From Lichenostomus cassidix (Eukaryota; Chordata; Aves; Passeriformes; Meliphagidae), in assembly GCA_008360975.2 (NCBI GenBank), contig CM039183.1, positions 78,404,350 through 78,468,349 of the forward strand: a DNA stretch of 64,000 nt. The letters run 5' to 3'. Positions 11,501 through 59,328 of this stretch are shown here, in pieces. Position 1 is the stretch's first letter. Every line of letters starts with the position of its first letter. Made by a program: the position numbers and the translations under genes. Below the pieces are notes generated by a model. That model made no database searches. It was given only the letters and a program-made list of their open reading frames with translations, and was not told the DNA's origin.

Positions 11501-14500
11501 ATTTCTTGCTCTCCTCAAGCAGAGGAGAGTGTGTTGTATCAGGCCAGAGGAGTCTGTTGTATCAGCAAAATTTTCTCAAGGTAAATCCAAACTAAAGAAT
11601 CCAATAAATTGTTCTGGAAAGAGTAACTGCCCGAAAAATGTATTCAACTATCTCAATATGTACACAACTTGCCAGATGTACGTAAGGTGCTGGAATAACC
11701 AGACTGAAAATACTGACTTTTATTTCAAGACAAGAGCTGCCTATGACAGTTTGGTCTCTGGGATCAGAAGAAAAAAGAGGGATCTTGATGGAGGGCAGGG
11801 CAGGAAAAGGTTCCTTATATGCACACAGACATATAGCATACACACACAGCTGTTTTCTAATGACTAAAAACAAAAAAAGAAACATAGCAGTACATTACTT
11901 CTAAAAGTCTTCGTGTACACAACAATTTCATCTTCAGGTATCTACTGTAAAAAAATTAATATATGCAAAAGTCTCCAACTGTGCAAGGAGAGAGTCTCCT
12001 GATAAATATGAGGTGATTTAGGATTTCTCATAATTTCCACGTAATTTTGGAATAAAGCATAAGAGACAATATTTTATTCTTAAAAAAACTCACCTTTTGG
12101 AGCAGCAATAGGCTTGACAGCCATTCTCCCAACAAGACATTCCTTCAGCATTGATTCATAATTGACCCAACGATGAACCTACATTAACAAGATATTTTTT
12201 CATAAAATTTGCAATTCCTACTATGTTATTCTATGCACTGAAATAGAAAAGTTCATTGACTAATATAATTCATTTAGTGGATTATTTTTTAAACACATTA
12301 AAAGTCACTATTACATCATTCAGTACTTGTTTTTACTTCTATTACAGATACCATGACACTAAATGAAAAAATAGGATTATGAAGAAAGTAAAAATAGTTT
12401 AATTTACTCATTTATGCTTTGCGATATCTGAAAATAACCTTAAACTACAGAATATAAGAGCATTTCACAAGAGCATTTTTATGATGCATGCTACACAACT
12501 AACAGAATAAAGACTTTGTCATTACCACAACATTTATTACTCTTTCTTAGACAAGTGAAGGGAAAAGGGATGAAGGAAACAAACATAAAGAATAATAGTT
12601 AAGACAAACAAACACCTCCTACCAAGCTGGTGTATTTCTGTTTGCTTCTGTCTTACTATCACTGAATCATTTGGAAATTCCTATTTTAGAAAGTCAAATA
12701 AAGTGAAGAAAAAGCAGTAGCTTTACAGACCAGAACTGGAGAACTTGTAGAGGAAATGGATGGCAGAAAAGCGAATTCTGATAGGGCATCCAGGATAACA
12801 TCACAAGAAGAGAAAAGGAAACAAAGTGTTGCATGACAAATTTGAATGGTATCAAGATTTAAAAATAAAAACTCTAAACTGGACAAACTAAGGAGACGAG
12901 ATAAAGAATCCCATCGACAAGTTGTAGTTTCCTCATATACAGATAACAGAAAGAAATGAAGGATTATGAATGACAGTTGATTTTCCCAGAAATTTGGGGA
13001 ACACAAGCAAGCTACTGAACTCTTAAAAAAAAACTAGTATCTGACAGACACAGAATGCTAAAGCAGAGGGGAAAACAAATGCCTATAGTAACAGGATAGT
13101 CATAAGCCAGAAACAGTAAGAGTGAAAAGAATATTTTCAGGATCTCAATCTGCTTCCATTCCCATGACAAAAAAAAACTTAAAAAAAAAAATGCAGCAAG
13201 CATGTGTCTGAATTTAATAACCACTACAGGAATGTCCCCAAATATTACTGATGTCAAGACTCCTGTTTTCAAGTACTTCATATAATGACCCAGCCACATA
13301 ATTCCAAGCCACAACTAGATACTGGATACTTGATACTACAAATTTTTTGAAACCAAAGAATTATGTCCAAATCCAACACTTCATTCTTGAAAGGACTAAC
13401 CAAGGATAAACTCAACAAAGGCAAAACATTATCCATCTTTATTTACATTGTTAAAAACATTCTGCAAATAAAGGCCTAACATTCTCTGGTACATGACATG
13501 TAAAGAGGTAACAGATTTCCTTTCAGAAACAGAGGATATTTCTTTTCTGCTCTTTCCCAGTTTCTCAGATAAACCTAGTGAGTAATGGAGACTCAAAGAA
13601 TGGGTGTTTCTAAAAAATACCAACTTAGTGAATCACCTTTTACAGCATCAAGATTGCAAGATTCCTTGCAGAAAGCACACTCATGCTGCAGAACCTTTAT
13701 TCTCTGAGTCTTTTCAAAACATTTAAAGAAACAGTAAACAAATAAGAAACCAAGTGTCATCTTGTGACTTGTTCACCAGTTAACAGCAGCTCCAGCACTT
13801 TTTCAGATAATGCAGTTGTCAAGTGAATAGACAAAGAATTCTACAAGCATTTGCCTTTCCTTAGGACTGAAAAGGTTCAAATCACCATTTCCACTGAAAT
13901 GTCCTAAAAATAATCGCAAAACATGCATTTTTCAAAGTATGGTGAGCAAGTGTCATTTGCTGCCAGTTGTTCTCACCTGATCAAAGAGATCTGTACCATC
14001 AGTTCCTGCTGCTTTCATTAGTTCATCCTCACCACCAGGATGATATTCCATGTACGGTGTGACATTATATACATATCCTGAAGAAAACAGAATATATAGG
14101 CTGTGAGCAGCATTTCTACAACCCCTCCTGTCTCCAAAAACAATGGAAAGGTTAGCACAAATTAAAGAGTGTACTAGCAAACAGTAGACACAATTGGAAC
14201 AAATAGTATGACTTCACAAAAACAGAAACATAAGTTACTCAATTGTATAGAGCACAAGAGGTATCTCATTACATGGAGATGCCAATCCTAAAATGCCATA
14301 CCGTTTGCCCTGGGTTAAGACTTCAACCTAGAAACTGAACATGATGTATTCTAGCTAGAGGGTAAAGGAATCATAGGCAGGCTTAAAAAGAGACAAAACT
14401 GAACCAGCTAGTGCACAGAATTGTTTTCCATTTCCTTCCAATTAAGTTACACCTGAAGTGTTGTCATAGCTGTTTCCCTACCACTCATCACCTAAGGAAT

Positions 14501-19553: not shown

Positions 19554-19719
19554 TCAGCAACGTGATTCTGTTCTTGAATCTTGTTCCAGTTCATCTTCAT
19601 CATCTTCACTATCCGAGTCTTCATAAAAGGAAATTGTAGCCTGAACTGGGAAGTTTTTCAGAAGTGCTTCAGCTTCCTGATACAAGTAATCATAACACCT
19701 TGATTTGGGCCAAAATAGT
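19554..19719 (-). CDS. RIPPLY2: RIPPLY2 coding exon 3 (Ripply homology domain, stop)
   Basis: This 166-bp exon including the stop completes Arg89 and reads LFWPKSRCYDYLYQEAEALL, then KNFPVQATISFYEDSDSEDD and the tail ending SRC before TGA. The FPVQATI core is the family signature. The acceptor is TTGTTTCAG. Confidence 0.97.
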
Positions 19720-21895
19720 CTGAAACAAGTATACAATAGATTTGCTTATTGTTATTACATATTTTACTCAGAAGTTGACATGCAAAGAAACAAAGTGAAA
19801 TTCTACTAAGACAAGCATCCTAAAGAGCTTTTCCTTACAGGTTAAATTGCTTTCTACATTCAATTAGGAAAAAAAAATTCTCTGGATTCTTACTTTAATC
19901 TGAAGCGATAAAGATGCATTTAAAGTGCTAGTTTTGCAGCAAAACTACTCTAAAGCACAAGACCCACTGCATCTGAAACTTCCCACTCCAGTACCTCATT
20001 AACAGTACTACCTGGGGATCTGATCCAAGTAGTACTGCCCCTACTGGAACTATTCCTAGGGAATATAATGGGTGTAAAACAGGATCAAAACCACAATTTG
20101 AATCAAATTAGTATTTTCTTACTGAAGGTCCCCAGCCTAGGTAGCTGTTAATAATTGTTTCACACCATTGTAAAATTCAAAGCAATTATAAAGGTCAAGG
20201 GGTGATCAGACCTTAATATTTCATCTGTCTTTCCAAAAATAATCAATAGACTGCTTAAGGAAGATGTCCCACAGATCTAGATTTTAAAGCAGTCTGTGTT
20301 ATATCCAAAAAAGTCTGATAAGATCACAGTTAGGAAGGGCTATCGGCTAATTATAATTTATTGCAATTAATATAATCTAAGTTGCTGTTCCTTTTCAACT
20401 ACCATCCTCTTTTGCTTACAGTTTGGAAACTGCTAGAAGGAACAGACCATGGAAGTCCCAAGAGCCAGGGGACTAGCATACTACAACATAATGAAATGCT
20501 GACTACAGATTGTTTAAAATAGACATGTATTAAGAAACAGAACTAGATGGCTTTCTAGCAATTACAAGAAATACTTTCTAGGCTACTGTTTAACAGTAGA
20601 CTGCTTCCTTTGCAGCACAAAGTCACTGACATCAGCTTTGTAACAGGTCTCCGTTCCCAGTGTTCCCTGCAACAGCATTTACTCAAACCTAAGCATTGGA
20701 GCAGTCACAGTGAAGTGTGCATATATAGTTGCTTAGTTAGTGCATCAGTATTTGAAGGATCAGAGCCTAGATTTGAAAGAAAGCCGCATCTCATCAGAAA
20801 AAACTACCTGTGCAATTATTTTAAGCACCTTGTAACACCTACCAGCATTTCTTAATACAGACTCTCCTACAGATTCAACTGTTCTTACTCTCTGTATTTC
20901 CTTTTCAGAACTGACAGTGCAGATACTATCACGACCTTCGTCGTTAAAGCAGTAGTTACATGAGTATTTTCCTCGGCAATGGTGACTTAGCCAGTCCATA
21001 CCCTCTTCTCCTGCCACTCTCTCCCGTGCCTCCACCTGCTTCCTTGCTCTGGGAGGGCGCTGGATGTTTGCACAGCAACACAGCCTAGGAACTACACGCC
21101 CTTGCCTTTTTTAATCCTGGGCACAGGAATGAGTAGCAAGGTGCATCAGCCAACTCCACCACCACCAAAAAACACTCACATAACTGTGTAATAGGTCTTA
21201 AGTCCCACACCACAGAGGCCCATCAACACCTCAACGATCTTAAATCCACGAGTCCTGGCAATCATTTGCCCAAGGATCTGTCAGTTCAAAAGCACATAGA
21301 TGGCCAATTCACTCCTAAGGCACTTTAATATCTACATAAATATATGGGTGGAAACAAAAGGGGCGGGAGAGCGAGCGTTGCGGCACTGCCCGGGCGAGCA
21401 AGGGACTCCCCTCCTGGCCGCGCAGAGCCACGGGCCCCTGGTCCCGGAGCTCCCCCGCGGGAACCAGCGGCGACCCTGGACAGTCACTTACCTGACGGGG
21501 TGCGTGTACTGCGCCAGCTTTCGGGAGGCTTCCGCCAGCCCGCCGGAGCTGTGGGGCTGCGGAGGAGAGAGCAGAGGTCAGCCCGCCGGCACGGCACCGG
21601 GCCCTCCCCGAGCATCCCCGCCCCGCCGGGACTCCCCAGCCGTGCGTGCGGCGATGCCAACGGCAGATGCTCCGCCGCGCCGAGCCCCACTCACCGCTGC
21701 GGGGCCGGGGCCGCTCCGCCGGGCCGCCTCGCCCGGCGCGGGCACCCACGGTCTCCAGAAGGGCGCAGGGCTGCGCGGCAAGGGCAGGGCCGTCAGGGCA
21801 GGGCCGGGGCGCCCCCCGCACCGGGAGGAGGAGAGGGGCGAGTAGCCCGGCGGGGGCAGCGCCGCTGAGAGCGGGCGGGGGCAGCCGCCCTCCAT
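19554..21895 (-). CDS. RIPPLY2: RIPPLY2 transcriptional repressor, complete
   Basis: Ripply proteins switch T-box factors such as Tbx6 from activator to repressor by recruiting Groucho/TLE, and so set somite boundaries in presomitic mesoderm. Three exons join in frame: 21695-21895, 21492-21556 and 19554-19719, giving 143 residues (human about 128). Exon 1 carries the Groucho-binding WRPW tetrapeptide at residues 47-50 (APFWRPWVP). The Ripply homology block spans roughly residues 80-121, from YTHPVRLFWPKS through YDYLYQEAEALLKNF to PVQATISFYE. An acidic tail (SDSEDDEDELE) follows, then a short QDSRTESRC end. The start ATG has A at -3 and G at +4. The N-terminal half is rich in Pro, Ala and Gly, as its CpG-rich DNA would predict. 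The gene lies upstream of CYB5R4 on the same strand, which is the conserved order. Confidence 0.95.
19720..21491 (-). other. RIPPLY2: RIPPLY2 intron 2
   Basis: This is 1,772 bp of unique sequence joining exons 2 and 3 in phase 2. No further exon is needed, because the junction reads HPV-R-LFWPKS without a gap. Confidence 0.85.
21492..21556 (-). CDS. RIPPLY2: RIPPLY2 coding exon 2
   Basis: This 65-bp exon encodes PHSSGGLAEASRKLAQYTHP and V, and leaves AG of a split Arg codon. KLAQYTHPVR matches the KLYQFRHPVR block before the Ripply domain in mammals. The acceptor is CTCCGCAG and the donor is GTCAG before GTAAGT. Confidence 0.93.
21695..21895 (-). CDS. RIPPLY2: RIPPLY2 coding exon 1 (WRPW motif)
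   Basis: This 201-bp exon (67 codons) begins MEGGCPRPLSAALPPPGYSP and contains WRPW at residues 47-50. The donor is GCAGCG before GTGAGT, phase 0. The intron that follows is only 138 bp. The frame has no upstream stop, but a TATA box 55 bp upstream limits how far the transcript can extend. Confidence 0.92.
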
Positions 21896-31036: not shown

Positions 31037-31285
31037 ATAAATATATAAATATATAAACATTTAAATATAAATATATAAATATATAAATATATAAAGATAA
31101 TTAATATATTAAATATATAAATATATATAAATACATAAATATATAAAGAATATATAAATATATTTATATTTATACTGTAAAAATATATTGCATATAAAAT
31201 ATGTATTATATAGGAGAATATCCATATTCTTACCATCCAAGAATATATATATTTTATATATATACCATGAAATATATATGGAATT
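31037..31285. repeat. AT-rich ATAAATAT-type low-complexity tract
   Basis: About 250 bp is almost entirely A and T, with repeated ATAAATAT and ATATAAAT units and interruptions. It gives open frames rich in Tyr, Ile and Phe on the minus strand that are artefacts of composition. Confidence 0.9.
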
Positions 31286-41984: not shown

Positions 41985-42222
41985 AGTTTCTCAGCTGGCT
42001 AACAAAGGCACTCGGCTCAAGTAATTGACTAGGGCTAGGGTCAGGGTTAGGGCTAGGGTTAGGGTTACGGCTGGGGTCAGGGTTGAGAGATCGAAAGAGC
42101 CTCGAGCTCCAGGGACACTGCCACTGGAATGAGCCTCCCAAAGCCATTGCAAGAAGGCCCTAATATGGCTGCTCCTCCACCTTTCTCAGCTGGTGAGTCA
42201 CATGCACTCGGCTCAAGTAATT
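41985..42222 (+). repeat. Left edge monomer(s) of the satellite
   Basis: The array begins abruptly after AT-rich unique DNA, with TTTCTCAGCTGGCTAACAAA joined to GGCACTCGGCTCAAG, the standard body end with a small alteration. The first head contains a mutated GGGTCAGGGTTAGGGCTAGG. This edge is outside the repeated higher-order unit. Confidence 0.8.
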
Positions 42223-45200
42223 GACTAGGGCTAGGGTTAGGGTTACGGCTAGGGTTACAGTTGAGAGATCTAATGAGCCTCCAACTCCAGACACACTGCC
42301 ACTGGAAAGAGCCTCCCAAGGCGATTGCAAGTAGGCCCTAACACAGCTGCTCCTCCAAGTGTCTCAGCTAGAGAACACAGGCAGTCTGCTCAACTAACTG
42401 ACTAGAGCTAGGGTCGGGGTTGAGAGTTCTAATGAGCCTCGAGCTCCATGGACACTGCCACTGGAAAGAGCCTCCCAAGGCCATTGTAAGAAGGCCCTAA
42501 CATGGCTGCTCTTCCATCTTTCTCAGCTGGCGAGTGAAGGGCACTCTAATGAATTAAATGACTAGGGCTAGGGTTAGGGTTACGACTAGGGTTAATGATG
42601 AGAGATCTAACGAGCCGCGAGCTCCAGACACACTGCCACTGGAAAGAGCCTCCCAAAGCCATTGCGAGAAGGCCCTAACATGGCTGCTCCTCCACCTTTC
42701 TCAGCTGGAGAACACTGGCACTCTGCTAAAGCAATTGACTAGGGCTAGGGTTAGGGTTACGGCTAGGGTTAGGGTTGAGAGATCGAAGGAGCCTCGAGCT
42801 CCAGGGACACTGCCACTGGAAAGAGCCTCCCAAGACCTTTGCAAGAAGGCCATAATATGGCTGGTTCTCCACATTTCTCAGCCGGCGAGGTACAGGCACG
42901 CTGCTCTAGTAATTGACTAGGGCTAGGGTTAGGGTTACGGCTAGGGTTAGGGTTACGGCTAGGGTTAGGGTTACGGCTAGGGTTAGGGTTACAGCTAGGG
43001 TTCGCGTTGTGGAGATCTCAAGAGCCTTGAGCTCCAGGGACACTGCCTCTGGAAAGAGCCTCCCAAGGCCATTGCAAGAAGGCCCTAACATGGCTGCTCT
43101 TCCACCTTTCTCACCTGGCGAGTGAAAGGCACTCTGCTCAAGTAATTGACTAGGGCTAGGGTTAGGGTTATGGCTAGGGTTAGGGTTAGGGTTGAGAGAT
43201 CTAAAGAGTCTCCAATTCCAGAAAAACAGCCATTGGAAAGAGAATCCCAAGGCCATTGTAAGAAGGGCCTAACATGGCTGCTCCTTCACATTTTTCAGCT
43301 GGCGAGTGACATGCACTCCGCTCAAGTAATTGACTAGGGCTAGGGTTAGGGTTAGGGTTACGGCTATGGTTAGGGTTACGGCTAGGGTTAGGGTTGAGAG
43401 ATCTAACGAGCCTCGAGCCTTAGGGACACTGCCACTGGAAAGAGCCTCCTAAGGCCATTGTAATAAGGCACTACCATGGTTGCTCCTCCACCTTTCTCAG
43501 CTGGAGAACACTGGCGCTCTGCTCAAGTAATTGACTAGGGGTAGGGTTAGGGTTACGGCTAGGGTTCGGGTTGTGGAGATCAAAAGAGCCTCCAACTCCA
43601 GAAACATTTCCGCTGGAAAGAGCCTCCCAAGGCCGTTGCAAGAAGGCCCTAATATGGCTGCTTCTCCACCTTTCTCAGCTAGAGAGCACAGGCACTCAGC
43701 TCACGTAATTTACTGCGGCTAGCGTTAGGGTTACGGCTAGGGTTCGGGTTGAGACATCTAATGAGCCTCGAGCTCCAGGGACACTGCCACTGGAAAGAAC
43801 CGCCCTAGGCCATTGCAAGAAAACCCTAAGAAGCTGCTCTTCCATCTTTCTCAGCTGGCGAGTGCAGGGCACTCTTCAGAATTAAATGACTAGGGCTAGG
43901 GTTAGGGTTATGACTAGGGTTAATGATGAGAGATCTAACGAGCCGTGAGCTCCAGACACACTGCCACTGGAAAGAGCCTCCCAAAGCCATTGCAAGAAGG
44001 CCCTAATATGGCTGCTCCTCAACCTTTCTCAGCCGGAGAACACTGGCACTCTGCTCAAGTAATTGACTAGGGGTAGGGTTAGGGTTACGGCTAGAGTTAA
44101 TGATGAGAGATCTAACGAGCCGCGAGCTCCAGGGACACTGCCACTGGAAAGAGCCTCCCAAGGCCTTTGCGAGAAGGCCCTAACATGGCTGCTCTTCCAC
44201 CTTTCTCAGCTGATGAGTGAAAGGCACTCTGCTCAAGTAATTGACTAGGGCTAGGGTTAGGGTTACGGCTAGGGTTAGGGTTACAGCTAGGGTTCTGGTT
44301 GTGGAGATCTCAAGAGCCTTGATCTCCAGGGACACTGCCAGTGGAAACAGCCTCCCAAGGCCTTTGCGAGAAGGCCCTAAATAGCTGCTCTTCCACCTTT
44401 CTCAGCTGGCGAGTGGCAGGCACTCCGCTCAAATAATTAACTAGGGCTAGGGTTAGGGTTACGGCTAGGCTTAGGGTTGAGAGATCTCAAGAGCCTCGAG
44501 CTCCAGGGACACTGCCACTGGAAAGAGCCTCCCAAGGCCATTGTAAGAAGGCACTAATATGGCTGCTCCTCCACCTTTCTCAGCTGGCAAGTGACAGGAA
44601 CTCCGCTCAAGTAATTGACTAGGGCTAGGGTTAGGATTACGGCTAGGGTTAGGGTTACGGCTAGGGTTAGGGTTATGGCTAGTGTTAATGTTAAGAGATC
44701 TAACGAGCCGCAAGCTCCAGACACACTGCCACTGGGAAGAGCCTCCAACGGCCATTGCAAGAAGGCCCTAATATGGCTGCTCCTCCGCCTTTCTCAGCTA
44801 GAGAGCACCCGCACTCAGCTTACGTAACTTACTGCGGCTAGCGTTAGGGTTACGGCTAGGGTTAGGGTTGAGACATCTAATGAGACTCGAGCTCCAGGGA
44901 CACTGCCACTGGAAAGAGCCGCCCTAGGCCGTTGCAAGACAGCCCTAACATGGCTGCTCTTCCACCTTTCTCAGCTGTCGAGTGACAGGCACTCTGCTCA
45001 AGTAATTGACTAGGGCTAGGGTTAGGGTTAAAGCTAGGGTTAGGGTTGAGAGAACTAAAGAGCCTCGAGCTCCAGGGACACTGCCACTGGAAAGAGTCTC
45101 CCAAGGCCGTTGCAAGAAGGCCCTAACATGGCTGCTCATTCACCATTCTGAAATGGCGAATGGCAGGCACTCTGCTCAAGTAATTGACTAGGGCAAGGCT

Positions 45201-46652
45201 TAGGGTTACGGCTAGGGTTACAGTTGAGAGATCTAAAGAGCTTCGAGCTCCAGGGACACTGCCACTGTAAAGAGACTCCCAAGGCCATTGTAAGAAGGCC
45301 CTAATATGGCTGCTCCTCCACATTTCTCAGCTGGCGAGTCACATGCACTCCGCTCAAGTAATTGACTAGGGCTAGGGTTAGGATTACGGCTATGGTTAGG
45401 GTTACAGCTAGGGTTAGGGTTTTGGAGATCTCAAGAGCCTTGAGCTCCAGGAACACTGCCAATGGAATGAGCCTCCCAAGGCCATTGCAAGAATTCCCTA
45501 ACATGGCTGCTCGTCCACATTTCTCATCTGGCGAGTGACAGGTACTCGGCTCAAGTAATTGACTAGGGCTAGGGTTACGGCTAGGGTACGGGGTTTGGAG
45601 ATCTCAAGAGCCTTGAGCTCCAGGGACACTGCCAATGGAATGAGCCTCCCAAGGCCTTTGTGAGAAGGCCCTAACATGGCTGCTCTTCCACCTTTCTCAG
45701 CTGGCGAGTGGCAGGCACTCCGCTCAAATAATTGACTAGGGCTAGGGTTAGGGTTACGGCTAGGGTTAGGGTTGAGAGATCTAAAGAGCCTCATGCTCCA
45801 GGGGCACTGCCAATGGAAAGAGCCTCCCAAGGCCTTTGCAAGAAGGCCGTAATATGGCTGCTCCTCCACCTTTCTCAGCTGGAGAACTCTGGCACTCTGC
45901 TCAAGTAATTGACTTGGGCTGGGGTTAGGGTTACGGCTAGGGTTAGGGTTACGGCTAGGGTTAGGGTTGAGAGATCTAAGCAGCCTCGAGGTCCAGGAAC
46001 ACTGCCACTGGAAAGAGCCTCCCAAGGCCATTGCGAGAAGGCCCTAACATAGCTGCCCCTCCACATTTCGTAGCTGGCGAGTGACAGGCACTCTGCTCAA
46101 GTAATTTACTGCGTCTAGGGTTAGGGTTACAGTTAGGGTTAGGGTTGAGAGAACTAAAGAGCCTCGAGCTCCAGACACATTTCCACTTAAAAGAGCCTCC
46201 TAAGGCCATTGCAAGAAGGCCGTAATGTGGCTGCTCCTCCACATTTCTCAGCTGGCGAGGTACAGGCACCCTACTCCAGTAATTGTCTAGGTCTAGGGTT
46301 AGGGTTACGGCTAGGGTTAGGGTTGTGAGATATAAAGAGCCTTGAGCTCCAGGGACACTGCCAGTGGAATCAGCCTCCCAAGGCCATTGTAAGAAGGCCC
46401 TTACATGGCTGCTCTTCCACCTTTCTCAGCTGGCGAGTGGTAGGCACTCTGCTCAAGTAATTGACTAGGGCTAGTGTTAGGGTTACGGCTAGGGTTAGGG
46501 CTAGGGTTAGGGTTGAGAGATCTAAAGAGCCTCACACTCCAGACACATTACCACTGGAAAGAGCCTCCCAATGCCATTGCAAAATGGCCCTAACATGGCT
46601 TCTCTTCCACCTTTCTCAGCTGGCGAGTGGCAGGCACTCCGCTCAAATAATT
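42223..46652 (+). repeat. Higher-order copy A (about 4.43 kb)
   Basis: This copy is bounded by equivalent GACTAGGGC monomer starts (42,223 and 46,653). Diagnostic variants also present in copies B and C include GACTAGAGCTAGGGTCGGGG (42,400 region), CGACTAGGGTTAATGATGAG (42,590) and TTTACTGCGGCTAGCGTTAG (43,710). Relative to B it has two extra 18-bp head units near 42,945-42,990 and an extra block of four monomers (about 44,210-44,975); it lacks three monomers that B has. Confidence 0.85.
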
Positions 46653-49600
46653 GACTAGGGCTAGGGTTAGGGTTACGGCTAGGGTTACAGTTGAGAGATC
46701 TAATGAGCCTCCAACTCCAGACACACTGCCACTGGAAAGAGCCTCCCAAGGCGATTGCAAGTAGGCCCGATCTTGCGTGGGAGAGAGGAGATTTATGTGC
46801 TTTTGCAGTTTGACAGGCTTTAAGACAGCTAGTTCCCCAAGACTTAGTCCCGTTCGCAAGATTCTTTGATATCTGGCTGATTTGTCTAAAAATACCATTT
46901 ATTTGACACAGAACATAATAAACATACAAACATAGAACAGATTGACACACATAAACACACAATGAATACATAATTGCAACACTATGGTAGCTAAAAATGC
47001 AATTATGGGGTAAAACCTTACTTGAACTATCAAGATAGTTAAAAACGCAAGAAATGCTTGCTTGAACAATAATGCAAGTTAAGAAATGCTTGCTTGAGCT
47101 AGCTGAAATGCAAGTTAAGAAAGGTACCTATAAGTTAGCCGGAATAATACAATTTAGGAAACTCAATGATCTCACCAAATCCAGTTTTTGGAGCTGGAGA
47201 TACATCAGCGTCCTCACTCAATCCCTCGGGAAGTAACCACAAAGTTTGCGTCCAAACTCAGGGGAGAAAGCTTTTACTTCACGTTCCATGTTCTATGTAT
47301 AAAGCTTCTGATTTTACTGAGTTTTTCGTGGTGTTTTATAGGGAAAAGAGTGTGTATTTGCGGTCACCTGAAAATTCTTCACATTCTCTCAGTGTCTCGC
47401 TCTGAGTTCCAGACGCCAGCACTGATAGTCAGGATTAAGCCATTGACTTAATCTGAGCCATCGATCTCGGCTAGCAATCAGGGAGAGAGAGAAGGGGGGG
47501 GGGGTGTCTGTCCTGCCACAGGCCCTAACACAGCTGCTCCTCCAAGTGTCTCAGCTAGAGAACACAGGCAGTCTGCTCAACTAACTGACTAGAGCTAGGG
47601 TCGGGGTTGAGAGTTCTAATGAGCCTCGAGCTCCATGGACACTGCCAATGGAAAGAGCCTCCCAAGGCCATTGTAAGAAGGCCCTAACATGGCTGCTCTT
47701 CCATCTTTCTCAGCTGGCGAGTGAAGGGCACTCTAATGAATTAAATGACTAGGGCTAGGGTTAGGGTTACGACTAGGGTTAATGATGAGAGATCTAACGA
47801 GCCGCGAGCTCCAGACACACTGCCACTGGAAAGAGCCTCCCAAAGCCATTGCAAGAAGGCCCTAACATGGCTGCTCCTCCACCTTTCTCAGCTGGAGAAC
47901 ACTGGCACTCTGCTCAAGTAATTGACAAGGGCTAGGGTTAGGGTTACGGCTAGGGTTAGGGTTGAGGGACCTAAAGAGCCTCGAGCTCCAGGGACACTGC
48001 CACTGGAAAGAGCCTCCCAAGACCTTTGCAAGAAGGCCGTAATATGGCTGCTTCTCCACCTTTCTCAGCCGGCGAGGTACAGGCACGCTGCTCTAGTAAT
48101 TGACTAGGGCTAGGGTTAGGGTTACGGCTAGGGTTCGCGTTGTGGAGATCTCAAGAGCCTTGAGCTCCAGGGACACTGCCAATGGAAAGAGCCTCCCAAG
48201 GCCATTGCAAGAAGGCCCTAACATGGCTGCTCTTCCACCTTTCTCACCTGGCGAGTGAAAGGCACTCTGCTCAAGTAATTGACTAGGGCTAGGGTTAGGG
48301 TTACGGCTAGGGTTAGGGTTAGGGTTGAGAGATCTAAAGAGTCTCCAATTCCAGAAAAACAGCCATTGGAAAGAGAATCCCAAGGCCATTGTAAGAAGGG
48401 CCTAACATGGCTGCTCCTTCACATTTTTCAGCTGGCGAGTGACATGCACTCCGCTCAAGTAATTGACTAGGGCTAGGGTTAGGGTTAGGGTTACGGCTAT
48501 GGTTAGGGTTACGGCTAGGGTTAGGGTTGAGAGATCTAACGAGCCTCGAGCCTTAGGGACACTGCCACTGGAAAGAGCCTCCTAAGGCCATTGTAATAAG
48601 GCACTACCATGGTTGCTCCTCCACCTTTCTCAGCTGGAGAACACTGGCGCTCTGCTCAAGTAATTGACTAGGGGTAGGGTTAGGGTTACGGCTAGGGTTC
48701 GGGTTGTGGAGATCAAAAGAGCCTCCAACTCCAGAAACATTTCCGCTGGAAAGAGCCTCCCAAGGCCGTTGCAAGAAGGTCCTAATATGGCTGCTCCTCC
48801 ACCTTTCTCAGCTGGAGAGCACAGGCACTCAGCTCACGTAATTTACTGCGGCTAGCGTTAGGGTTACGGCTAGGGTTCGGGTTGAGACATCTAATGAGCC
48901 TCGAGCTCCAGGGACACTGCCACTGGAAAGAACCGCCCTAGGCCATTGCAAGAAAACCCTAAGAAGCTGCTCTTCCATCTTTCTCAGCTGGCGAGTGCAG
49001 GGCACTCTTCAGAATTAAATGACCAGGGCTAGGGTTAGGGTTACGACTAGGGTTAATGATGAGAGATCTAACGAGCCGTGAGCTCCAGACACACTGCCAC
49101 TGGAAAGAGCCTCCCAAAGCCATTGCAAGAAGGCCCTAATATGGCTGCTCCTCAACCTTTCTCAGCCGGAGAACACTGGCACTCTGCTCAAGTAATTGAC
49201 TAGGGGTAGGGTTAGGGTTACGGCTAGAGTTAATGATGAGAGATCTAACGAGCCGCGAGCTCCAGGGACACTGCCACTGGAAAGAGCCTCCCAAGGCCTT
49301 TGCGAGAAGGCCCTAACATGGCTGCTCTTCCACCTTTCTCAGCTGTCGAGTGACAGGCACTCTGCTCAAGTAATTGACTAGGGCTAGGGTTAGGGTTAAA
49401 GCTAGGGTTCTGGTTGAGAGAACTAAAGAGCCTCGAGCTCCAGGGACACTGCCACTGGAAAGAGTCTCCCAAGGCCGTTGCAAGAAGGCCCTAACATGGC
49501 TGCTCATTCACCATTCTGAAATGGCGAATGGCAGGCACTCTGCTCAAGTAACTGACTAGGGCAAGGCTTAGGGTTACGGCTAGGGTTACAGTTGAGAGAT

Positions 49601-51573
49601 CTAAAGAGCTTCGAGCTCCAGGGACACTGCCACTGTAAAGAGACTCCCAAGGCCATTGTAAGAAGGCCCTTACATGGCTGCTCCTCCACATTTCTCAGCT
49701 GGCGAGTCACATGCACTCCGCTCAAGTAATTGACTAGGGCTAGGGTTAGGATTACGGCTATGGTTAGGGTTACGGCTAGGGTTAGGGTTTTGGAGATCTC
49801 AAGAGCCTTGAGCTCCAGGAACACTGCCAATGGAATGAGCCTCCCAAGGCCATTGCAAGAATTCCCTAACATGGCTGCTCTTCCACATTTCTCATCTGGC
49901 GCGTGACAGGTACTCGGCTCAAGTAATTGACTAGGGCTAGGGTTACGGCTAGGGTACGGGGTTTGGAGATCTCAAGAGCCTTGAGCTCCAGGGACACTGC
50001 CAATGGAATGAGCCTCCCAAGGCCTTTGTGAGAAGGCCCTAACATGGCTGCTCTTCCACCTTTCTCAGCTGGCGAGTGGCAGGCACTCCGCTCAAATAAT
50101 TGACTAGGGCTAGGGTTAGGGTTACGGCTAGGGTTAGGGTTGAGAGATCTAAAGAGCCTCGTGCTCCAGGGACACTGCCAATGGAAAGAGCCTCCCAAGG
50201 CCTTTGCAAGAAGGCCGTAATATGGCTGCTCCTCCACCTTTCTCAGCTGGAGAACTCTGGCACTCTGCTCAAGTAATTGACTTGGGCTGGGGTTAGGGTT
50301 ACGGCTAGGGTTAGGGTTACGGCTAGGGTTAGGGTTGAGAGATCTAAAGAGCCTCGATTTCCAGTAACACTGCCACTGGAAAGAGTCTCCCAAGGCCGTT
50401 GCAAAAAGGCCCTAACATGGCTGCTCTTACACCATTCTCAGATGGCAAGTGAAAGGCTCTCCGCTCAAGTAAATGACAAGGGCTAGGGTTAGGGTTACGG
50501 CTAGGGTTAGGGTTGAGAGATACAAAGAGCCTCGAGCTCCAGGGATACTGCCACGTGAAAGAGCCTCCAAAGGCCATTGCAAGAAGGCCGTAATATGGCT
50601 GCTCGTCCACATTTCTCTGCTGGCGAGTGACAGGTCCTCTGCTCAAGTAATTGACTAGGGCTAGGGTTAGGGTTAGGGCTATGGTTAGGGTTATGGCTAG
50701 GGTACGGATTTTGGAGATCTCAAGAGCCTTGAGCTCCAGGGACACTGCCAATGGAATGAGCCTCCCAAAGCCTTTGTGAGAAGGCCCTAACATGGCTGCT
50801 CTTCCACCTTTCTCAGCTGGCGAGTGGCAGGCACTCCGCTCAAATAATTAACTAAGGCTAGGGTTAGGGTTACGGCTAGGGTTAGGGTTGAGAGATCTAA
50901 GCAGCCTCGAGGTCCAGGGACACTGCCACTGGAAAGAGCCTCCCAAGGCCATTGCGAGAAGGCCCTAACATAGCTGCCCCTCCACATTTCATAGCTGGCG
51001 AGTGACAGGCACTCTGCTCAAGTAATTTACTGCGTCTAGGGTTAGGGTTACGGTTAGGGTTAGGGTTGAGAGAACTAAAGAGCCTCGAGCTCCAGACACA
51101 CTTCCACTTAAAAGAGCCTCCTAAGGCCATTGCAAGAAGGCCGTAATGTGGCTGCTCCTCCACATTTCTCAGCTGGCGAGGTACAGGCACCCTACTCCAG
51201 TAATTGTCTAGGTCTAGGGTTAGGGTTACGGCTAGGGTTAGGGTTGTGAGATATAAAGAGCCTTGAGCTCCAGGGACACTGCCAGTGGAATCAGCCTCCC
51301 AAGGCCATTGTAAGAAGGCCCTTACATGGCTGCTCTTCCACCTTTCTCAGCTGGCGAGTGGTAGGCACTCTGCTCAAGTAATTGACTAGGGCTAGTGTTA
51401 GGGTTACGGCTAGGGTTAGGGCTAGGGTTAGGGTTGAGAGATCTAAAGAGCCTCACACTCCAGACACATTACCACTGGAAAGAGCCTCCCAATGCCATTG
51501 CAAAATGGCCCTAACATGGCTTCTCTTCCACCTTTCTCAGCTGGCGAGTGGCAGGCACTCCGCTCAAATAATT
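46653..51573 (+). repeat. Higher-order copy B (about 4.16 kb without the LTR)
   Basis: This copy starts with the monomer at 46,653, is interrupted by an LTR-like insertion (46,769-47,520), and continues to 51,573. It lacks the four-monomer block seen in A (44,210-44,975) and C (53,890-54,655); the junction lies near 49,345. It has three monomers at about 50,345-50,885 that A lacks. Confidence 0.85.
46769..47520 (-). mobile_element. LTR-like insertion (752 bp) inside the satellite
   Basis: Non-satellite sequence interrupts a monomer whose two paralogues (about 42,325-42,340 and 51,680-51,695) are intact. A 5-bp duplication GGCCC flanks it (46,764-46,768 and 47,521-47,525). On the minus strand it begins TGTGGCAGGACAGACACC followed by a C10 run, has TATAAAA at 47,334-47,340 and AATAAA at 46,898-46,903, and ends CACGCAAGATC. 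This looks like a solo retroviral LTR, although the end is TC rather than the usual CA. No viral coding region is present. Confidence 0.7.
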
Positions 51574-54500
51574 GACTAGGGCTAGGGTTAGGGTTACGGC
51601 TAGGGTTACAGTTGAGAGATCTAATGAGCCTCCAACTCCAGACACACTGCCACTGGAAAGAGCCTCCCAAGGCGATTGCAAGTAGGCCCTAACACAGCTG
51701 CTCCTCCAAGTGTCTCAGCTAGAGAACACAGGCAGTCTGCTCAACTAACTGACTAGAGCTAGGGTCGGGGTTGAGAGTTCTAATGAGCCTCGAGCTCCAT
51801 GGACACTGCCACTGGAAAGAGCCTCCCAAGGCCATTGTAAGAAGGCCCTAACATGGCTGCTCTTCCATCTTTCTCAGCTGGCGAGTGAAGGGCACTCTAA
51901 TGAATTAAATGACTAGGGCTAGGGTTAGGGTTACGACTAGGGTTAATGATGAGAGATCTAACGAGCCGCGAGCTCCAGACACACTGCCACTGGAAAGAGC
52001 CTCCCAAAGCCATTGCAAGAAGGCCCTAACATGGCTGCTCCTCCACCTTTCTCAGCTGGAGAACACTGGCACTCTGCTAAAGCAATTGACTAGGGCTAGG
52101 GTTAGGGTTACGGCTAGGGTTAGGGTTGAGAGATCGAAGGAGCCTCGAGCTCCAGGGACACTGCCACTGGAAAGAGCCTCCCAAGACCTTTGCAAGAAGG
52201 CCGTAATATGGCTGGTTCTCCACATTTCTCAGCCGGCGAGGTACAGGCACGCTGCTCTAGTAATTGACTAGGGCTAGGGTTAGGGTTACGGCTAGGGTTT
52301 GCGTTGTGGAGATCTCAAGAGCCTTGAGCTCCAGGGACACTGCCAATGGAAAGAGCCTCCCAAGGCCATTGCAAGAAGGCCCTAACATGGCTGCTCTTCC
52401 ACCTTTCTCACCTGGCGAGTGAAAGGCACTCTGCTCAAGTAATTGACTAGGGCTAGGGTTAGGGTTACGGCTAGGGTTAGGGTTAGGGTTGAGAGATCTA
52501 AAGAGTCTCCAATTCCAGAAAAACAGCCATTGGAAAGAGAATCCCAAGGCCATTGTAAGAAGGGCCTAACATGGCTGCTCCTTCACATTTTTCAGCTGGC
52601 GAGTGACATGCACTCCGCTCAAGTAATTGACTAGGGCTAGGGTTAGGGTTAGGGTTACGGCTATGGTTAGGGTTACGGCTAGGGTTAGGGTTGAGAGATC
52701 TAACGAGCCTCGAGCCTTAGGGACACTGCCACTGGAAAGTGCCTCCCAAGGCCATTGCAAGAAGGCCCTAACATGGCTGCTCTTCCACCTTTCTCACCTG
52801 GCGAGTGAAAGGCAGTCTGCTCAAGTAATTGACTAGGGCTAGGGTTAGGGTTACGGCTAGGGTTAGGGTTAGGGTTGAGAGATCTAAAGAGTCTCCAATT
52901 CCAGAAAAACAGCCATTGGAAAGAGAATCCCAAGGCCATTGTAAGAAGGGCCTAACATGGCTGCTCCTTCACATTTTTCAGCTGGCGAGTGACATGCACT
53001 CCGCTCAAGTAATTGACTAGGGCTAGGGTTAGGGTTAGGGTTACGGCTATGGTTAGGGTTACGGCTAGGGTTAGGGTTGAGAGATCTAACGAGCCTCGAG
53101 CCTTAGGGACACTGCCACTGGAAAGAGCCTCCTAAGGCCATTGTAATAAGGCACTACCATGGTTGCTCCTCCACCTTTCTCAGCTGGAGAACACTGGCGC
53201 TCTGCTCAAGTAATTGACTAGGGGTAGGGTTAGGGTTACGGCTAGGGTTCGGGTTGTGGAGATCAAAAGAGCCTCCAACTCCAGAAACATTTCCGCTGGA
53301 AAGAGCCTCCCAAGGCCGTTGCAAGAAGGCCCTAATATGGCTGCTCCTCCACCTTTCTCAGCTAGAGAGCACAGGCACTCAGCTCACGTAATTTACTGCG
53401 GCTAGCGTTAGGGTTACGGCTAGGGTTCGGGTTGAGACATCTAATGAGCCTCGAGCTCCAGGGACACTGCCACTGGAAAGAACCGCCCTAGGCCATTGCA
53501 AGAAAACCCTAAGAAGCTGCTCTTCCATCTTTCTCAGCTGGCGAGTGCAGGGCACTCTTCAGAATTAAATGACTAGGGCTAGGGTTAGGGTTACGACTAG
53601 GGTTAATGATGAGAGATCTAACGAGCCGTGAGCTCCAGACACACTGCAACTGGAAAGAGCCTCCCAAAGCCATTGCAAGAAGGCCCTAATATGGCTGCTC
53701 CTCAACCTTTCTCAGCCGGAGAACACTGGCGCTCTGCTCAAGTAATTGACTAGGGGTAGGGTTAGGGTTACGGCTAGAGTTAATGATGAGAGATCTAACG
53801 AGCCGCGAGCTCCAGGGACACTGCCACTGGAAAGAGCCTCCCAAGGCCTTTGCGAGAAGGCCCTAACATGGCTGCTCTTCCACCTTTCTCAGCTGACGAG
53901 TGAAAGGCACTCTGCTCAAGTAATTGACTAGGGCTAGGGTTAGGGTTACGGCTAGGGTTAGGGTTACAGCTAGGGTTCTGGTTGTGGAGATCTCAAGAGC
54001 CTTGATCTCCAGGGACACTGCCAGTGGAAACAGCCTCCCAAGGCCTTTGCGAGAAGGCCCTAAATAGCTGCTCTTCCACCTTTCTCAGCTGGCGAGTGGC
54101 AGGCACTCCGCTCAAATAATTAACTAGGGCTAGGGTTAGGGTTACGGCTAGGCTTAGGGTTGAGAGATCTCAAGAGCCTCGAGCTCCAGGGACACTGCCA
54201 CTGGAAAGAGCCTCCCAAGGCCATTGTAAGAAGGCACTAATATGGCTGCTCCTCCACCTTTCTCAGCTGGCAAGTGACAGGAACTCCGCTCAAGTAATTG
54301 ACTAGGGCTAGGGTTAGGATTACGGCTAGGGTTAGGGTTACGGCTAGGGTTAGGGTTATGGCTAGTGTTAATGTTAAGAGATCTAACGAGCCGCAAGCTC
54401 CAGACACACTGCCACTGGGAAGAGCCTCCAACGGCCATTGCAAGAAGGCCCTAATATGGCTGCTCCTCCGCCTTTCTCAGCTAGAGAGCACCCGCACTCA

Positions 54501-56715
54501 GATCACGTAACTTACTGCGGCTAGCGTTAGGGTTACGGCTAGGGTTAGGGTTGAGACATCTAATGAGACTCGAGCTCCAGGGACACTGCCACTGGAAAGA
54601 GCCGCCCTAGGCCGTTGCAAGACAGCCCTAACATGGCTGCTCTTCCACCTTTCTCAGCTGTCGAGTGACAGGCACTCTGCTCAAGTAATTGACTAGGGCT
54701 AGGGTTAGGGTTAAAGCTAGGGTTAGGGTTGAGAGAACTAAAGAGCCTCGAGCTCCAGGGACACTGCCACTGGAAAGAGTCTCCCAAGGCCGTTGCAAGA
54801 AGGCCCTAACATGGCTGCTCATTCACCATTCTGAAATGGCGAATGGCAGGCACTCTGCTCAAGTAATTGACTAGGGCAAGGCTTAGGGTTACGGCTAGGG
54901 TTACAGTTGAGAGATCTAAAGAGCTTCGAGCTCCAGGGACACTGCCACTGTAAAGAGACTCCCAAGGCCATTGTAAGAAGGCCCTTACATGGCTGCTCCT
55001 CCACATTTCTCAGCTGGCGAGTCACATGCACTCCGCTCAAGTAATTGACTAGGGCTAGGGTTAGGATTACGGCTATGGTTAGGGTTACAGCTAGGGTTAG
55101 GGTTTTGGAGATCTCAAGAGCCTTGAGCTCCAGGAACACTGCCAATGGAATGAGCCTCCCAAGGCCATTGCAAGAATTCCCTAACATGGCTGCTCTTCCA
55201 CATTTCTCATCTGGCGAGTGACAGGTACTCGGCTCAAGTAATTGACTAGGGCTAGGGTTACGGCTAGGGTACGGGGTTTGGAGATCTCAAGAGCCTTGAG
55301 CTCCAGGGACACTGCCAATGGAATGAGCCTCCCAAAGCCTTTGTGAGAAGGCCCTAACATGGCTGCTCTTCCACCTTTCTCAGCTGGCGAGTGGCAGGCA
55401 CTCCGCTCAAATAATTGACTAGGGCTAGGGTTAGGGTTACGGCTAGGGTTAGGGTTGAGAGATCTAAAGAGCCTCGAGCTCCAGGGACACTGCCACTGGA
55501 AAGAGCCTCCCAAGGCCTTTGCAAGAAGGCCCTAACATGGCTGCTCCTCCACCTTTCTCAGCTGGAGAACTCTGGCACTCTGCTCAAGTAATTGACTTGG
55601 GCTGGGGTTAGGGTTACGGCTAGGGTTAGGGTTACGGCTAGGGTTAGGGTTACGGCTAGGGTTAGGGTTGTGAGATCTAAAGAGCCTCGATTTCCAGCAA
55701 CACTGCCACTGGAAAGAGTCTCCCAAGGCCGTTGCAAAAAGGCCCTAACATGGCTGCTCTTACACCATTCTAAGATGGCAAGAAAGGCTCTCCGCTCAAG
55801 TAAATGACAAGGGCTAGGGTTAGGGTTACGGCTAGGGTTAGGGTTGAGAGATACAAAGAGCCTCGAGCTCCAGGGATACTGCCACTGGAATGAGCCTCCC
55901 AAGGCCATTGCAAGAAGGCCGTAATATGGCTGCTCGTCCACATTTCTCTGCTGGCGAGTGACAGGTACTCGGCTCAAGTAATTGACTAGGGCTAGGGTTA
56001 TGGTTAGGGTTACAGTTGAGACATCAAAGGAGCCTCAAGCTCCAGACACACTTCCACTTAAAAGAGCCTCCTAAGGCCATTCCAAGAAGGCCGTAATGTG
56101 GCTGCTCCTCCACATTTCTCAGCTGGCGAGGTACAGGCACCCTACTCCAGTAATTGTCTAGGTCTAGTGTTAGGGTTACGGCTAGGGTTAGGGTTACAGC
56201 TAGGGTTCGGGTTGTGGAGATCTGAAGAGCCTTGAGGTCCAGGGACACTGCCTCTGGAAAGAGCCTCCCAAGGCCTTTGCGAGAAGGCCCTAACATGGCT
56301 GCTCTTCCACCTTTCTCAGCTGGCGAGTGACAGGAACTCCGCTCAAGTAATAGACTAGGGCTGGGGTTAGGATTACGGCTAGGGTTAGGGTTGAGAGATT
56401 TAAGGAGCCTCACACTGCAGACACATTACCTCTGGAAAGAGCCTCCCAGTGCCGTTGAAAAACTGCCCTAACATGGCTGCTCTTACGCCATTCTCAGATG
56501 GCAAGAAAAGGCACTCCGCTCAAGTAATTGACTAGGGCTAGGGTTAGGGTTATGGCTAGGGTTAGGGCTAGGGTTAGGGTTGAGAGATCTAAAGAGCCTC
56601 ACACTCCAGACACATTACCACTGGAAAGAGCCTCCCAATGCCATTGCAAAATGGCCCTAACATGGCTTCTCTTCCACCTTTCTCAGCTGGCGAGTGGCAG
56701 GCACTCGGCTCAATA
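51574..56715 (+). repeat. Higher-order copy C (about 5.14 kb)
   Basis: This copy has the same diagnostic variants as A and B, plus a 386-bp two-monomer direct duplication (52,443-52,828 matching 52,829-53,214). Its right part (about 55,980-56,715) is rearranged compared with A and B. Confidence 0.8.
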
Positions 56716-58249
56716 ATTTACTACGGCTAGGGTTAGGGTTACGGCTAGGGTTAGGGTTGAGAGATCTAAGGAGCCATGAGCTCCAGGGACACTTCCAGTG
56801 GAAACAGCCTCCCAAGGCCATTGCAAGAAGGCCCTAACATGGCTGCTCCTCCACCTTTCTCAGCTGGAGAACACTGGCACTCTGCTCAAGTAATTGACAA
56901 GGGCTAGGGTTAGGGTTACGGCTAGGGTTAGGGTTGAGGGACCTAAAGAGCCTCGAGCTCCAGGGACACTGCCACTGGAAAGAGCCTCCCAAGGCCATTG
57001 CAAGAAGGCCCTAACATGGCTGCTCTTCCACCTTTCTCAGATGCAAGTGAAAGGCACTCCGCTCAAGTAATTGAATAGGGCTAGGGTTAGGGTTGCGGCT
57101 ATGGTTAGGGTTACGGCTAGGGTTAGGGTTTTGGAGATCTCAAGAGCCTTGAGCTCCAGGAACACTGCCAATGGAATGAGCCTCCCAAGGCCATTGCAAG
57201 AACGCCCTAATATGGCTGCTCCTCCACATTTCTCATCTGGCGAGGACAGGTACTCTGCTCAAGTAATTGACTAGGGCTAGGGTTACGGCTAGGGTAGGGT
57301 TTGGAGATCTCAAGAGCCTTGAGCTCCAGGCACACTTCCAAGGAAGAGCTTCCCAAAGCCTTTGTGAGAAGGCCCTAACATGGCTGCTCTTACACCTTTC
57401 TCAGCTGGCGAGTGGCAGGCACTCTGCTCAAATAATTGACTATGGCTAGGGCTAGGGTTACGGCTAGGGTTAGGGTTGAGAGATCTAAAGAGCCTCGAGC
57501 TCCAGGGACACTGCTGATGGAAAGAACTTCCCATGGCCATTGCAAGAAGGCCTTAACATTGCTTCTCCTCCACATTTCTTTGCTGGAGGACACTGGCACT
57601 CTGCTCAGGTAATTGACTAGGGCTAGGGTATGGGTTACGGCTAGGGTTAGGGTTACTGCTAGGATTCAGGTTGTGGAGATCTAAAGAGCCTTGAGCTCCA
57701 GGGACACTGCCACTGGAAAGAGCTTCCAAAGGCCATTGCAAGAAGGCCCTAACATGGCTGCTCTTACACCTTTCTCAGCTGGAGAAGAAATGCACTCTGC
57801 TGAAGTAATTGACTAGGGCTAGTGTTAGGGTTACGGCTAGGGTTAGGGTTGAGAGATCTAAAGAGCCTCGAGCCTTAGGGACACTGCCAGTGGAAAGAGC
57901 CTCCCAAGGCCATTGCAAGAAGGCTGTAACATGGCTGCTCTTCCACCTTTTTCAGCTGGCGAGTGACAAGCACTCTGCTCAAGTAATTGACTAGGGCTAG
58001 GGTTAGGGTTACGGCTAGGGTTAGGGTTAGGGTTATGGCTTTGGTTAGGGTTGTGAGATCTAACGATCCTCGAGCTCCAGACACACTGCTACTGGAAAGA
58101 GCCTCCCAAGGCCATTGTGAGAAGGCCCTAACATGACTGTTCCTCCACCTTTCTCAGCTGGCGAGTGACAGTCATTCTTGTCAAGTAAGTAACTAGGGCT
58201 TGTGTAGTGTTATGTCTAGGGTTATTGTTTAAAGATCTAAAGAACCTCC
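56716..58249 (+). repeat. Right edge of the satellite, diverged monomers
   Basis: About eight monomers do not continue the higher-order pattern. They carry more changes, for example AATAGGGCTAGGG and GGGTTGCGGCTATGG near 57,073. The last head at about 58,195-58,225 is barely recognisable (GGGCTTGTGTAGTGTTATG), and the array stops after AAAGATCTAAAGAACCTCC. Edge decay is typical of satellites homogenised in the middle. Confidence 0.85.
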
Positions 58250-59223: not shown

Positions 59224-59328
59224 TTATGGTTTAGTGGTTTAGGGGTTACAGTGGCCTTTCTGGGTGGGAGGTTGGACTGGATCATCTTGAAGGTCTCTTC
59301 CAACCTTGATGATTCTATGATTCTATGA
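59224..59328 (+). mobile_element. CR1 LINE 3' terminus
   Basis: About 105 bp of sense CR1 3' end: GGGAGGTTGGACTGGATCAT, then GAAGGTCTCTTCCAACCTTG, ending GATTCTATGATTCTATGA with the octamer tail repeated. Confidence 0.95.

What the first reader, a model, noticed from the sequence alone, without database searches (positions are those of the whole stretch)
41985..58249. Four-tier telomere-derived satellite with higher-order repeats
Seen: hexamers (TTAGGG, TTACGG, CTAGGG) build an 18-bp unit, which heads a monomer of about 175-235 bp, and about 20-27 monomers form a 4.2-5.1 kb unit present three times. Monomers in one copy differ clearly while equivalent monomers across copies are nearly identical. 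Known: this pattern is the hallmark of higher-order satellites, best described for alpha satellite. Inference: an interstitial telomeric seed captured a non-telomeric body and was amplified. A higher-order organisation built on telomere-like heads in an avian chromosome arm, close to RIPPLY2/CYB5R4, is to my knowledge not a named family.
Basis: partly seen in the sequence, partly recalled or inferred. Interest (0 to 1): 0.78.

Follow-up and report, generated by a model that had tools for sequence, protein, structure and literature searches.

The report
Telomere-headed songbird satellite with higher-order repeats
This stretch is an old island of a repeat family found across this bird's genome; each repeat begins with telomere-like letters, and here whole blocks of about two dozen repeats were copied three times, most simply by ordinary recombination errors.

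Summary
Window 41985-58249 is a tandem array of 84 anchored monomers (159-233 bp; 44 of 83 spacings are 177/178), each a telomere-like head, (TAGGGT TAGGGT TACGGC)n, plus a body of about 139 bp. Three higher-order copies are 98.7-99.1% identical in register and 87% when slid by one monomer. They differ by a four-monomer deletion with a hybrid-like junction, a local duplication, a conversion-like tract and a 751-bp insert beside one copy, so a simple assembly duplication is unlikely.

The interpretation needs correcting. The family is genome-wide (3,639 tag hits; at least nine contigs) and the window holds a diverged subfamily. Elsewhere it forms large homogeneous arrays sharing one 177-bp consensus; three of five of those tested also show a higher-order period. 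At the start of C5 and near the end of C2 it adjoins a 377-bp satellite. Higher-order repeats are published for chicken CNM, and telomeric components of satellites are known; repeat libraries could not be searched. Most likely it is an ordinary (peri)centromeric-type satellite with an unusual monomer. A role for the head is untested; conservation gave it little support.

The parts
41985..58249 (+). Whole satellite array, 84 anchored monomers; TRF-type head sites on the + strand only in the monomers counted; both ends fall inside a monomer body
42326..46577 (+). Higher-order copy A (monomers 1-23; junction monomer 24 follows and holds the insert)
   Evidence: 98.7% to B and 99.1% to C in register
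47513..51498 (+). Higher-order copy B (monomers 25-46); lacks the equivalents of A's monomers 11-14 and has three that A lacks (41-43)
51677..55908 (+). Higher-order copy C (monomers 48-70); contains a two-monomer local duplication (52/53 = 54/55)
55909..58249 (+). Older, more diverged tail (monomers 71-82 plus a partial one); best partners 0.90-0.95, except monomer 76 at 0.989 to monomer 27
46769..47519 (.). 751-bp non-satellite insert flanked by a 6-bp direct repeat (46763-46768 and 47520-47525); the same monomer position is uninterrupted at about 42326 and 51677; element type not identified
47915..47975 (+). Conversion-like tract in monomer 27: seven sites differ from both in-register equivalents (3 and 50) and all seven agree with tail monomer 76
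49301..49478 (+). Hybrid-like monomer 35 at the four-monomer deletion in copy B: agrees with monomer 11 at three early sites where it differs from 15, and with 15 over most of the rest; two head sites (110-111) also differ from 15, so the junction is not perfectly clean
42921..43002 (+). Example of an expanded head: unit GGCTAGGGTTAGGGTTAC, 4.6 copies at 98%; this monomer is 54 bp longer than its equivalents in B and C
19596..19769 (-). Ripply-domain exon (context, about 22 kb from the array)
   Evidence: PF14998, E 1.6e-23; coordinates converted from the translated frame
14001..14084 (-). Part of a Cyt-b5-domain exon, cut by the edge of the stretch searched (context)
   Evidence: PF00173, E 1.4e-6

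Best explanation
The interval is a diverged island of a genome-wide, telomere-headed satellite (unit 177 bp plus multiples of 18 bp). Shown by the sequence: the head varies mainly in 18-bp steps; monomers are tandem and mostly 80-94% alike; a block of 23-24 monomers exists in three copies about 1% apart; a hybrid-like junction, an internal duplication and a conversion-like tract are what unequal exchange and gene conversion leave behind; elsewhere the same family forms large, homogenised arrays with one consensus. Inferred: the family's main home is (peri)centromeric heterochromatin or a chromosome end; the window array was seeded from an older layer of it and then re-amplified locally; it has no function of its own at this site and persists by recombination; the head came from telomeric repeats in the family's ancestor, not at this locus.
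For: In-register against slid identity. Lag test: window lag 24 (0 of 300 shuffles reach it), C5:93.7M piece lag 19 (0 of 300), C88 piece lag 20 (0 of 300), C115 piece lag 18 (1 of 300). Genome tag count 2,578 + 1,061 = 3,639 against 0 for the reversed pattern; the same tag finds 70 matches among the 84 window monomers. Of 13 pieces read from C88, 10 are satellite; so are all 30,000 bp read from C115 (31,638 bp), all 8,503 bp read from C113 (18,503 bp), and 19,999 of 20,000 bp at C5:93.716-93.736M. Majority consensus identical, 177 of 177, in C88, C115 and C5:93.7M; window consensus 160 of 177. On a tree of 291 monomers (83 from the window; other arrays with more than 12 cut to 12) the 158 majority-type monomers form one clade, and window against the rest needs 5 changes, shuffled minimum 61. 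At the start of C5 and near the end of C2 it adjoins a 377-bp satellite.
Against: No cytogenetic or CENP-A data. The telomere-headed satellite was seen at only 1 of 22 chromosome-scale contig starts (C1-C22, first 600-2000 bp; C9 reads N) and at 0 of 7 ends (last 600-2000 bp). At the C5 start it is absent at 4,001-4,300, so that array is under 4 kb; near the C2 end it is patchy (present at 57.6805 and 57.6903 Mb, absent at 57.6850 and 57.6930 Mb). Sizeable arrays lie inside C5 (78.4, 84.6, 93.7 Mb), which fits dispersed islands as well. Two of six arrays gave no higher-order lag: C113 (lags 2-26, 261 of 300 shuffles reach it) and C32 (109 of 300), though lag 37 in C113 has mean 0.998 over seven pairs. 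Window monomers form six separate pure clades (support 0.72-0.95), not one. No outgroup bird was available.
Confidence: 0.8

Rival explanations
1. Local birth: a short interstitial telomeric seed at this locus captured neighbouring non-telomeric DNA and was amplified here.
For: The head of the majority consensus aligns to (TTAGGG)n with score 31 against a maximum of 12 in 300 shuffles; the body does not stand out (287 of 300 shuffles reach its TTAGGG score, 48 of 300 its CCCTAA score). Window monomers fall in window-only clades.
Against: The full monomer, head plus body, recurs on at least nine contigs, and far larger homogeneous arrays lie elsewhere. The small C5:62.6M island has the window-type sequence (0.913 to the window consensus, 8 monomers).
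Confidence: 0.05
2. The three copies are an assembly artefact (haplotype or read-overlap duplication of one copy).
For: Tandem satellites are often mis-assembled; no read depth was available. One C88 piece holds 500 N.
Against: In-register copies differ by 45, 32 and 40 substitutions; one lacks four monomers with a hybrid-like junction, one has a local duplication, and one junction holds a 751-bp insert. The 100 bases left and right of the array share no word longer than 7.
Confidence: 0.06
3. The telomere-like head is functional: a binding platform for telomere Myb proteins (TRF-type site YTAGGGTTR, motif recalled) or a G-quadruplex module that helps chromatin or kinetochore assembly in the main arrays.
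For: Mean 3.2 YTAGGGTTR sites per monomer in the window set (3 of 83 with none) and 3.6-5.1 in the C88, C115, C113 and C5:93.7M sets (none without a site). Mean divergence is lower in head than body in all five array sets, clearly in four (for example C88 0.025 against 0.053; C32 0.081 against 0.083). G4Hunter-type score 1.18 in the head against -0.12 in the body. In chicken, (TTAGGG)n makes up the centromere core of seven chromosomes (PMC9974502, passages).
Against: Against all same-length blocks of the monomer the head ranks only 29 of 178 (window), 80 of 177 (C32), 27 of 177 (C88), 18 of 177 (C5:93.7M) and 14 of 177 (C115); its 15-base core ranks 13, 97, 7, 102 and 46 (170-180 bp monomers only). 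In C32, 6 of 39 monomers have lost every site. Slippage inside the head could alone keep it uniform.
Confidence: 0.15
4. The head is a G-rich minisatellite that merely resembles telomere repeats (convergence).
For: TACGGC, not telomeric, recurs in the 18-bp unit; the head's main step is 18 bp, not 6.
Against: Of six head hexamers in the consensus four are exactly TAGGGT and a fifth TAGGGC; the telomere alignment score is far above shuffles.
Confidence: 0.15

Closest known systems
Chicken CNM 41-bp centromeric repeat with higher-order repeats (PMC9974502; passages seen)
   Same: Avian satellite; diverged monomers within repeated units of 26-98 monomers; (TTAGGG)n found within the arrays at seven centromere cores.
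   Different: Monomer 41 bp; here a 177+18n bp monomer carries the telomere-like part itself. CENP-A position is known for CNM and unknown here.
Heterochromatic interstitial telomeric repeats / telomeric component of satellites in vertebrates (PMC9693754; passages seen)
   Same: [quoted passage not shown] Chinese hamster, arvicolids and marsupials are named.
   Different: The passages mostly concern TTAGGG blocks seen by FISH; here a short fixed head sits on a long non-telomeric body, with higher-order copies. The review says bird FISH usually shows only terminal signals.
Primate alpha satellite higher-order repeats (recalled)
   Same: Nucleosome-sized monomers, multimonomer units, in-register identity far above adjacent identity.
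   Different: No sequence relation is claimed or was tested; only three units here.
Telomere-similar repeats in potato centromeres (cited in PMC3276127; passage seen)
   Same: Telomere-similar tandem DNA in centromeric regions.
   Different: A plant; its array structure was not read here.

Membership tests
Higher-order-repeat satellite (alpha/CNM type) | Equivalent monomers across units far more alike than neighbours | tested here: met
   0.987-0.991 in register, 0.867-0.873 slid by one monomer; lag 24, 0 of 300 shuffles reach it
Higher-order-repeat satellite (alpha/CNM type) | Long runs of many near-identical units | tested here: inconclusive
   Only three units in the window, the last running into a diverged tail; arrays elsewhere were only sampled
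Higher-order-repeat satellite (alpha/CNM type) | CENP-A / kinetochore occupancy | not testable with these tools
   No chromatin data
Chicken CNM repeat | 41-bp monomer | tested here: not met
   Monomer 159-233 bp, 44 of 83 spacings 177/178
Telomeric-component satellite (het-ITS type) | Telomeric hexamers as a constant part of an amplified satellite | tested here: met
   Telomere-like head in all nine group consensuses built and TRF-type sites in most monomers
Telomeric-component satellite (het-ITS type) | Location in constitutive heterochromatin | not testable with these tools
   Only adjacency to a 377-bp satellite at the C5 start and near the C2 end was seen
Fusion-type interstitial telomere | Head-to-head TTAGGG/CCCTAA junction of pure repeats | tested here: not met
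   No reverse-strand TRF-type site in any monomer set counted; the consensus CCCTAA lies in the body
Catalogued repeat (Repbase/Dfam) | Match to a library consensus | not testable with these tools
   No repeat library on hand; six sequence strings in PMC text, 0 papers

The most novel reading that the evidence does not exclude
This is the main (peri)centromeric satellite of a songbird in which the telomere module that chicken carries as separate (TTAGGG)n cores has been fused into each nucleosome-length monomer. The head recruits telomere Myb proteins or forms quadruplexes that mark the array, and the family expands in layers: diverged subfamilies at the edges (C88:25 kb, C5:84.6M type) and a young homogenised type inside.
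Probability: 0.12. Interest if true: 0.72.

Novelty: new member of a known kind. Interest (0 to 1): 0.4.

Why it matters
It adds an unusual satellite monomer, telomere-like head plus non-telomeric body, to the known avian higher-order satellites. It also gives a compact, readable example of how such units grow: 18-bp slippage, monomer loss with a hybrid-like junction, a conversion-like tract and block duplication. Telomere probes used in songbird cytogenetics might light up such arrays and be misread as chromosome-fusion scars. If the main arrays prove centromeric, it offers a direct test of why telomere-like DNA recurs at bird centromeres.

Tried and rejected
Self-BLAST of the array chained unrelated monomers and was replaced by anchor-based decomposition. 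Rfam at gathering thresholds found nothing in the window. Exact-string scans of viral contigs and prokaryote genome contigs gave 0 matches. A body-consensus search of the whole genome had too many candidates and was not scored. The idea that the head is under selection was tested and got little support, so it stays a rival. The species was not identified; contig sizes (152.7, 115.3, 113.3, 71.4, 63.8 Mb) resemble a songbird set from recall only. In the passages or sections opened no matching repeat was seen: ten thrush satellites of 21-1644 bp, none near 177 (PMC11375038, section 5); nightingales without interstitial TTAGGG signal (PMC8687609, passages); wheatear with 16 satellite consensuses whose sequences were not seen (PMC10234393, passages); geckos with telomeric-like motifs of unresolved origin (PMC9859368, passages). 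Supplements could not be opened.
Full report
What is there. The interval 41985-58249 is a tandem array on the + strand. It starts and stops inside a monomer body, with non-satellite flanks. An anchor in the body finds 84 monomers, spaced 159 to 233 bp (one spacing of 935 holds an insert); 44 of 83 spacings are 177 or 178. The consensus is 178 bp: a head CTAGGGCTAGGGTTAGGGTTACGGCTAGGGTTAGGGTT and a body of about 139-140 bp. In the majority consensus the head scores 31 against (TTAGGG)n, with a maximum of 12 in 300 shuffles; the body does not stand out on either strand (287 of 300 and 48 of 300 shuffles reach its scores). Length classes step mainly by 18 bp, the head's repeat, with some 6-bp steps.

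Higher-order structure. Over 83 units the mean pairwise identity is 0.867 (for the unit with the insert only its two ends were used). In register, copies A and B agree at 0.9869 over 19 monomer pairs, A and C at 0.9912 over 20, and B and C at 0.9869 over 17; sliding by one monomer gives 0.867 (A-B) and 0.873 (A-C). I chose the pairs from the identity matrix, so they are best-register pairs. Left out of the sums were monomers without a partner (A's 11-14 in B; B's 41-43 in A), C's duplicate pair, the junction monomers, and the tail; in A-C and B-C also the end of the unit, where C is diverged. A register-free test, the best mean identity at any lag, gives lag 24, reached by 0 of 300 order shuffles.

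How it grew. Copy B lacks four monomers present in A and C, and monomer 35 at that place agrees with monomer 11 at three early sites and with monomer 15 over most of the rest. That is the kind of hybrid expected from unequal crossing-over, though two head sites also depart from 15. Monomer 27 differs from both in-register equivalents at seven sites within 61 bp and agrees with tail monomer 76 at all seven, which looks like gene conversion or a short out-of-register exchange. Copy C has a two-monomer duplication, and monomer 4 of A is 54 bp longer in the head than its equivalents. A 751-bp insert with a 6-bp direct repeat interrupts the junction after copy A, while the same position is uninterrupted at about 42326 and 51677. 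The simplest reading is that it came after the units had been copied. The tail beyond 55909 is an older, more diverged relative of the same series.

Genome-wide setting. The window lies at G000:C5:78404350-78468349 of a 1.10-Gb assembly with 514 contigs. A 26-base body tag with up to three mismatches occurs 2,578 + 1,061 = 3,639 times, the reversed control 0 times. It gives 70 matches in the window, where 84 monomers were anchored, so the true number is probably higher; at about 185 bp each, 3,639 is roughly 0.67 Mb. Places seen include C1, C2, C5 (several), C6, C9, C32, C88, C113 and C115; both listings are capped. Of 13 pieces read from C88 (281,608 bp), 10 are satellite, in both orientations, with non-satellite DNA at both contig ends. 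C115 (30,000 of 31,638 bp read), C113 (8,503 of 18,503 bp read) and C5:93.716-93.736M are almost wholly satellite.

Subfamilies. Arrays on C88, C115, C113 and C5:93.7M are homogeneous (mean identity 0.937-0.965 per piece) and share one 177-bp consensus, with extra head bases in C113's; the window (0.868) and C32 (0.863) are diverged. On a tree of 291 monomers the 158 majority-type monomers form a single clade; the window falls into six pure clades and needs five changes against a shuffled minimum of 61. A third type is found at C5:84.6M (18 monomers, 0.909) and at the C88 edge (4 monomers, 0.924, against a consensus made from those four). Young homogeneous cores with diverged edges would fit layered expansion, but only one edge piece was read. 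Of five other arrays tested for a higher-order lag, C5:93.7M, C88 and C115 pieces show one (0, 0 and 1 of 300 shuffles reach it) and C113 and C32 do not (261 and 109 of 300).

Neighbouring satellite. A 377-bp satellite fills C6:1-2000, lies at the starts of C5 (308 bp) and C16 and, more weakly, C10 (190 bp at 81%), at the end of C3, and at C2:57,676,769-57,677,767, directly beside the telomere-headed satellite on C5 and C2. Of 22 chromosome-scale contig starts examined (C9 reads N) four carry it, and of seven ends one. The telomere-headed satellite was at one of the 22 starts and none of the seven ends; at the C5 start it is gone by 4,001, and near the C2 end it is patchy. This is suggestive of a chromosome-end or pericentromeric home, no more.

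Function. The head carries TRF-type sites (the motif YTAGGGTTR is recalled): 273 in the window against 2.5 expected, 3.2 per monomer in the window and 3.6-5.1 in the major arrays. It is also the G-quadruplex-prone part. Head columns diverge less than body columns in all five array sets, barely so in C32, but compared with every same-length block of the monomer the head ranks 14 to 80 of 177-178, so it is not exceptional. I therefore hold that the array persists by recombination alone, and give a binding role 0.15.

Against what is known. [quoted passage not shown] Telomeric repeats as part of satellites are reviewed for several vertebrates, while bird FISH usually shows terminal signals (PMC9693754, passages). 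A thrush paper mentions a higher-order relation between two of its ten satellites, none of them near 177 bp (PMC11375038, section 5). Six sequence strings were found in no PMC paper, but repeat libraries and supplements were not searchable. So the find is, as far as I can tell, a new member of a known kind with an unusual monomer.

Noticed in passing
L047 (G000:C6:1-2000), L060/L081 (C16 start), L088 (C3 end), L029:1-308 (C5 start), L067:769-1767 (C2 near its end), L054 (C10 start, weak): A second satellite of 376-377 bp at several chromosome-contig ends, beside the telomere-headed satellite on C5 and C2; possibly a centromere-core or subtelomeric repeat. If C2 and C3 are two parts of one chromosome (recalled songbird sizes), both break at or near it.
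   Followed up: partly
G000:C88 (pieces L010-L015, L036-L039): The satellite on C88 changes orientation at least three times (+ in pieces at 25-55 kb, - at 70-116 kb, + at 135-145 kb, - at 170-226 kb); unrelated DNA was read at both contig ends.
   Followed up: no
G000:C5, 21.3 to 103.3 Mb: Satellite tag or BLAST places at many points of one chromosome (21.3, 49.6, 55.3, 62.6, 71.3, 75.5, 78.4, 84.6, 87.2, 93.4-93.7, 103.3 Mb; those at 21.3, 55.3, 71.3 and 87.2 rest on single tag hits). Enrichment could not be judged because the listings are capped.
   Followed up: partly
window 31036-31188: AT-rich tandem repeat (8-bp TATAAATA unit, 15.4 copies over 31036-31163, with longer periods to 31188).
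   Followed up: no
window 59223-59328: Looks like the 3' end of a CR1 retroposon, from recall only.
   Followed up: no
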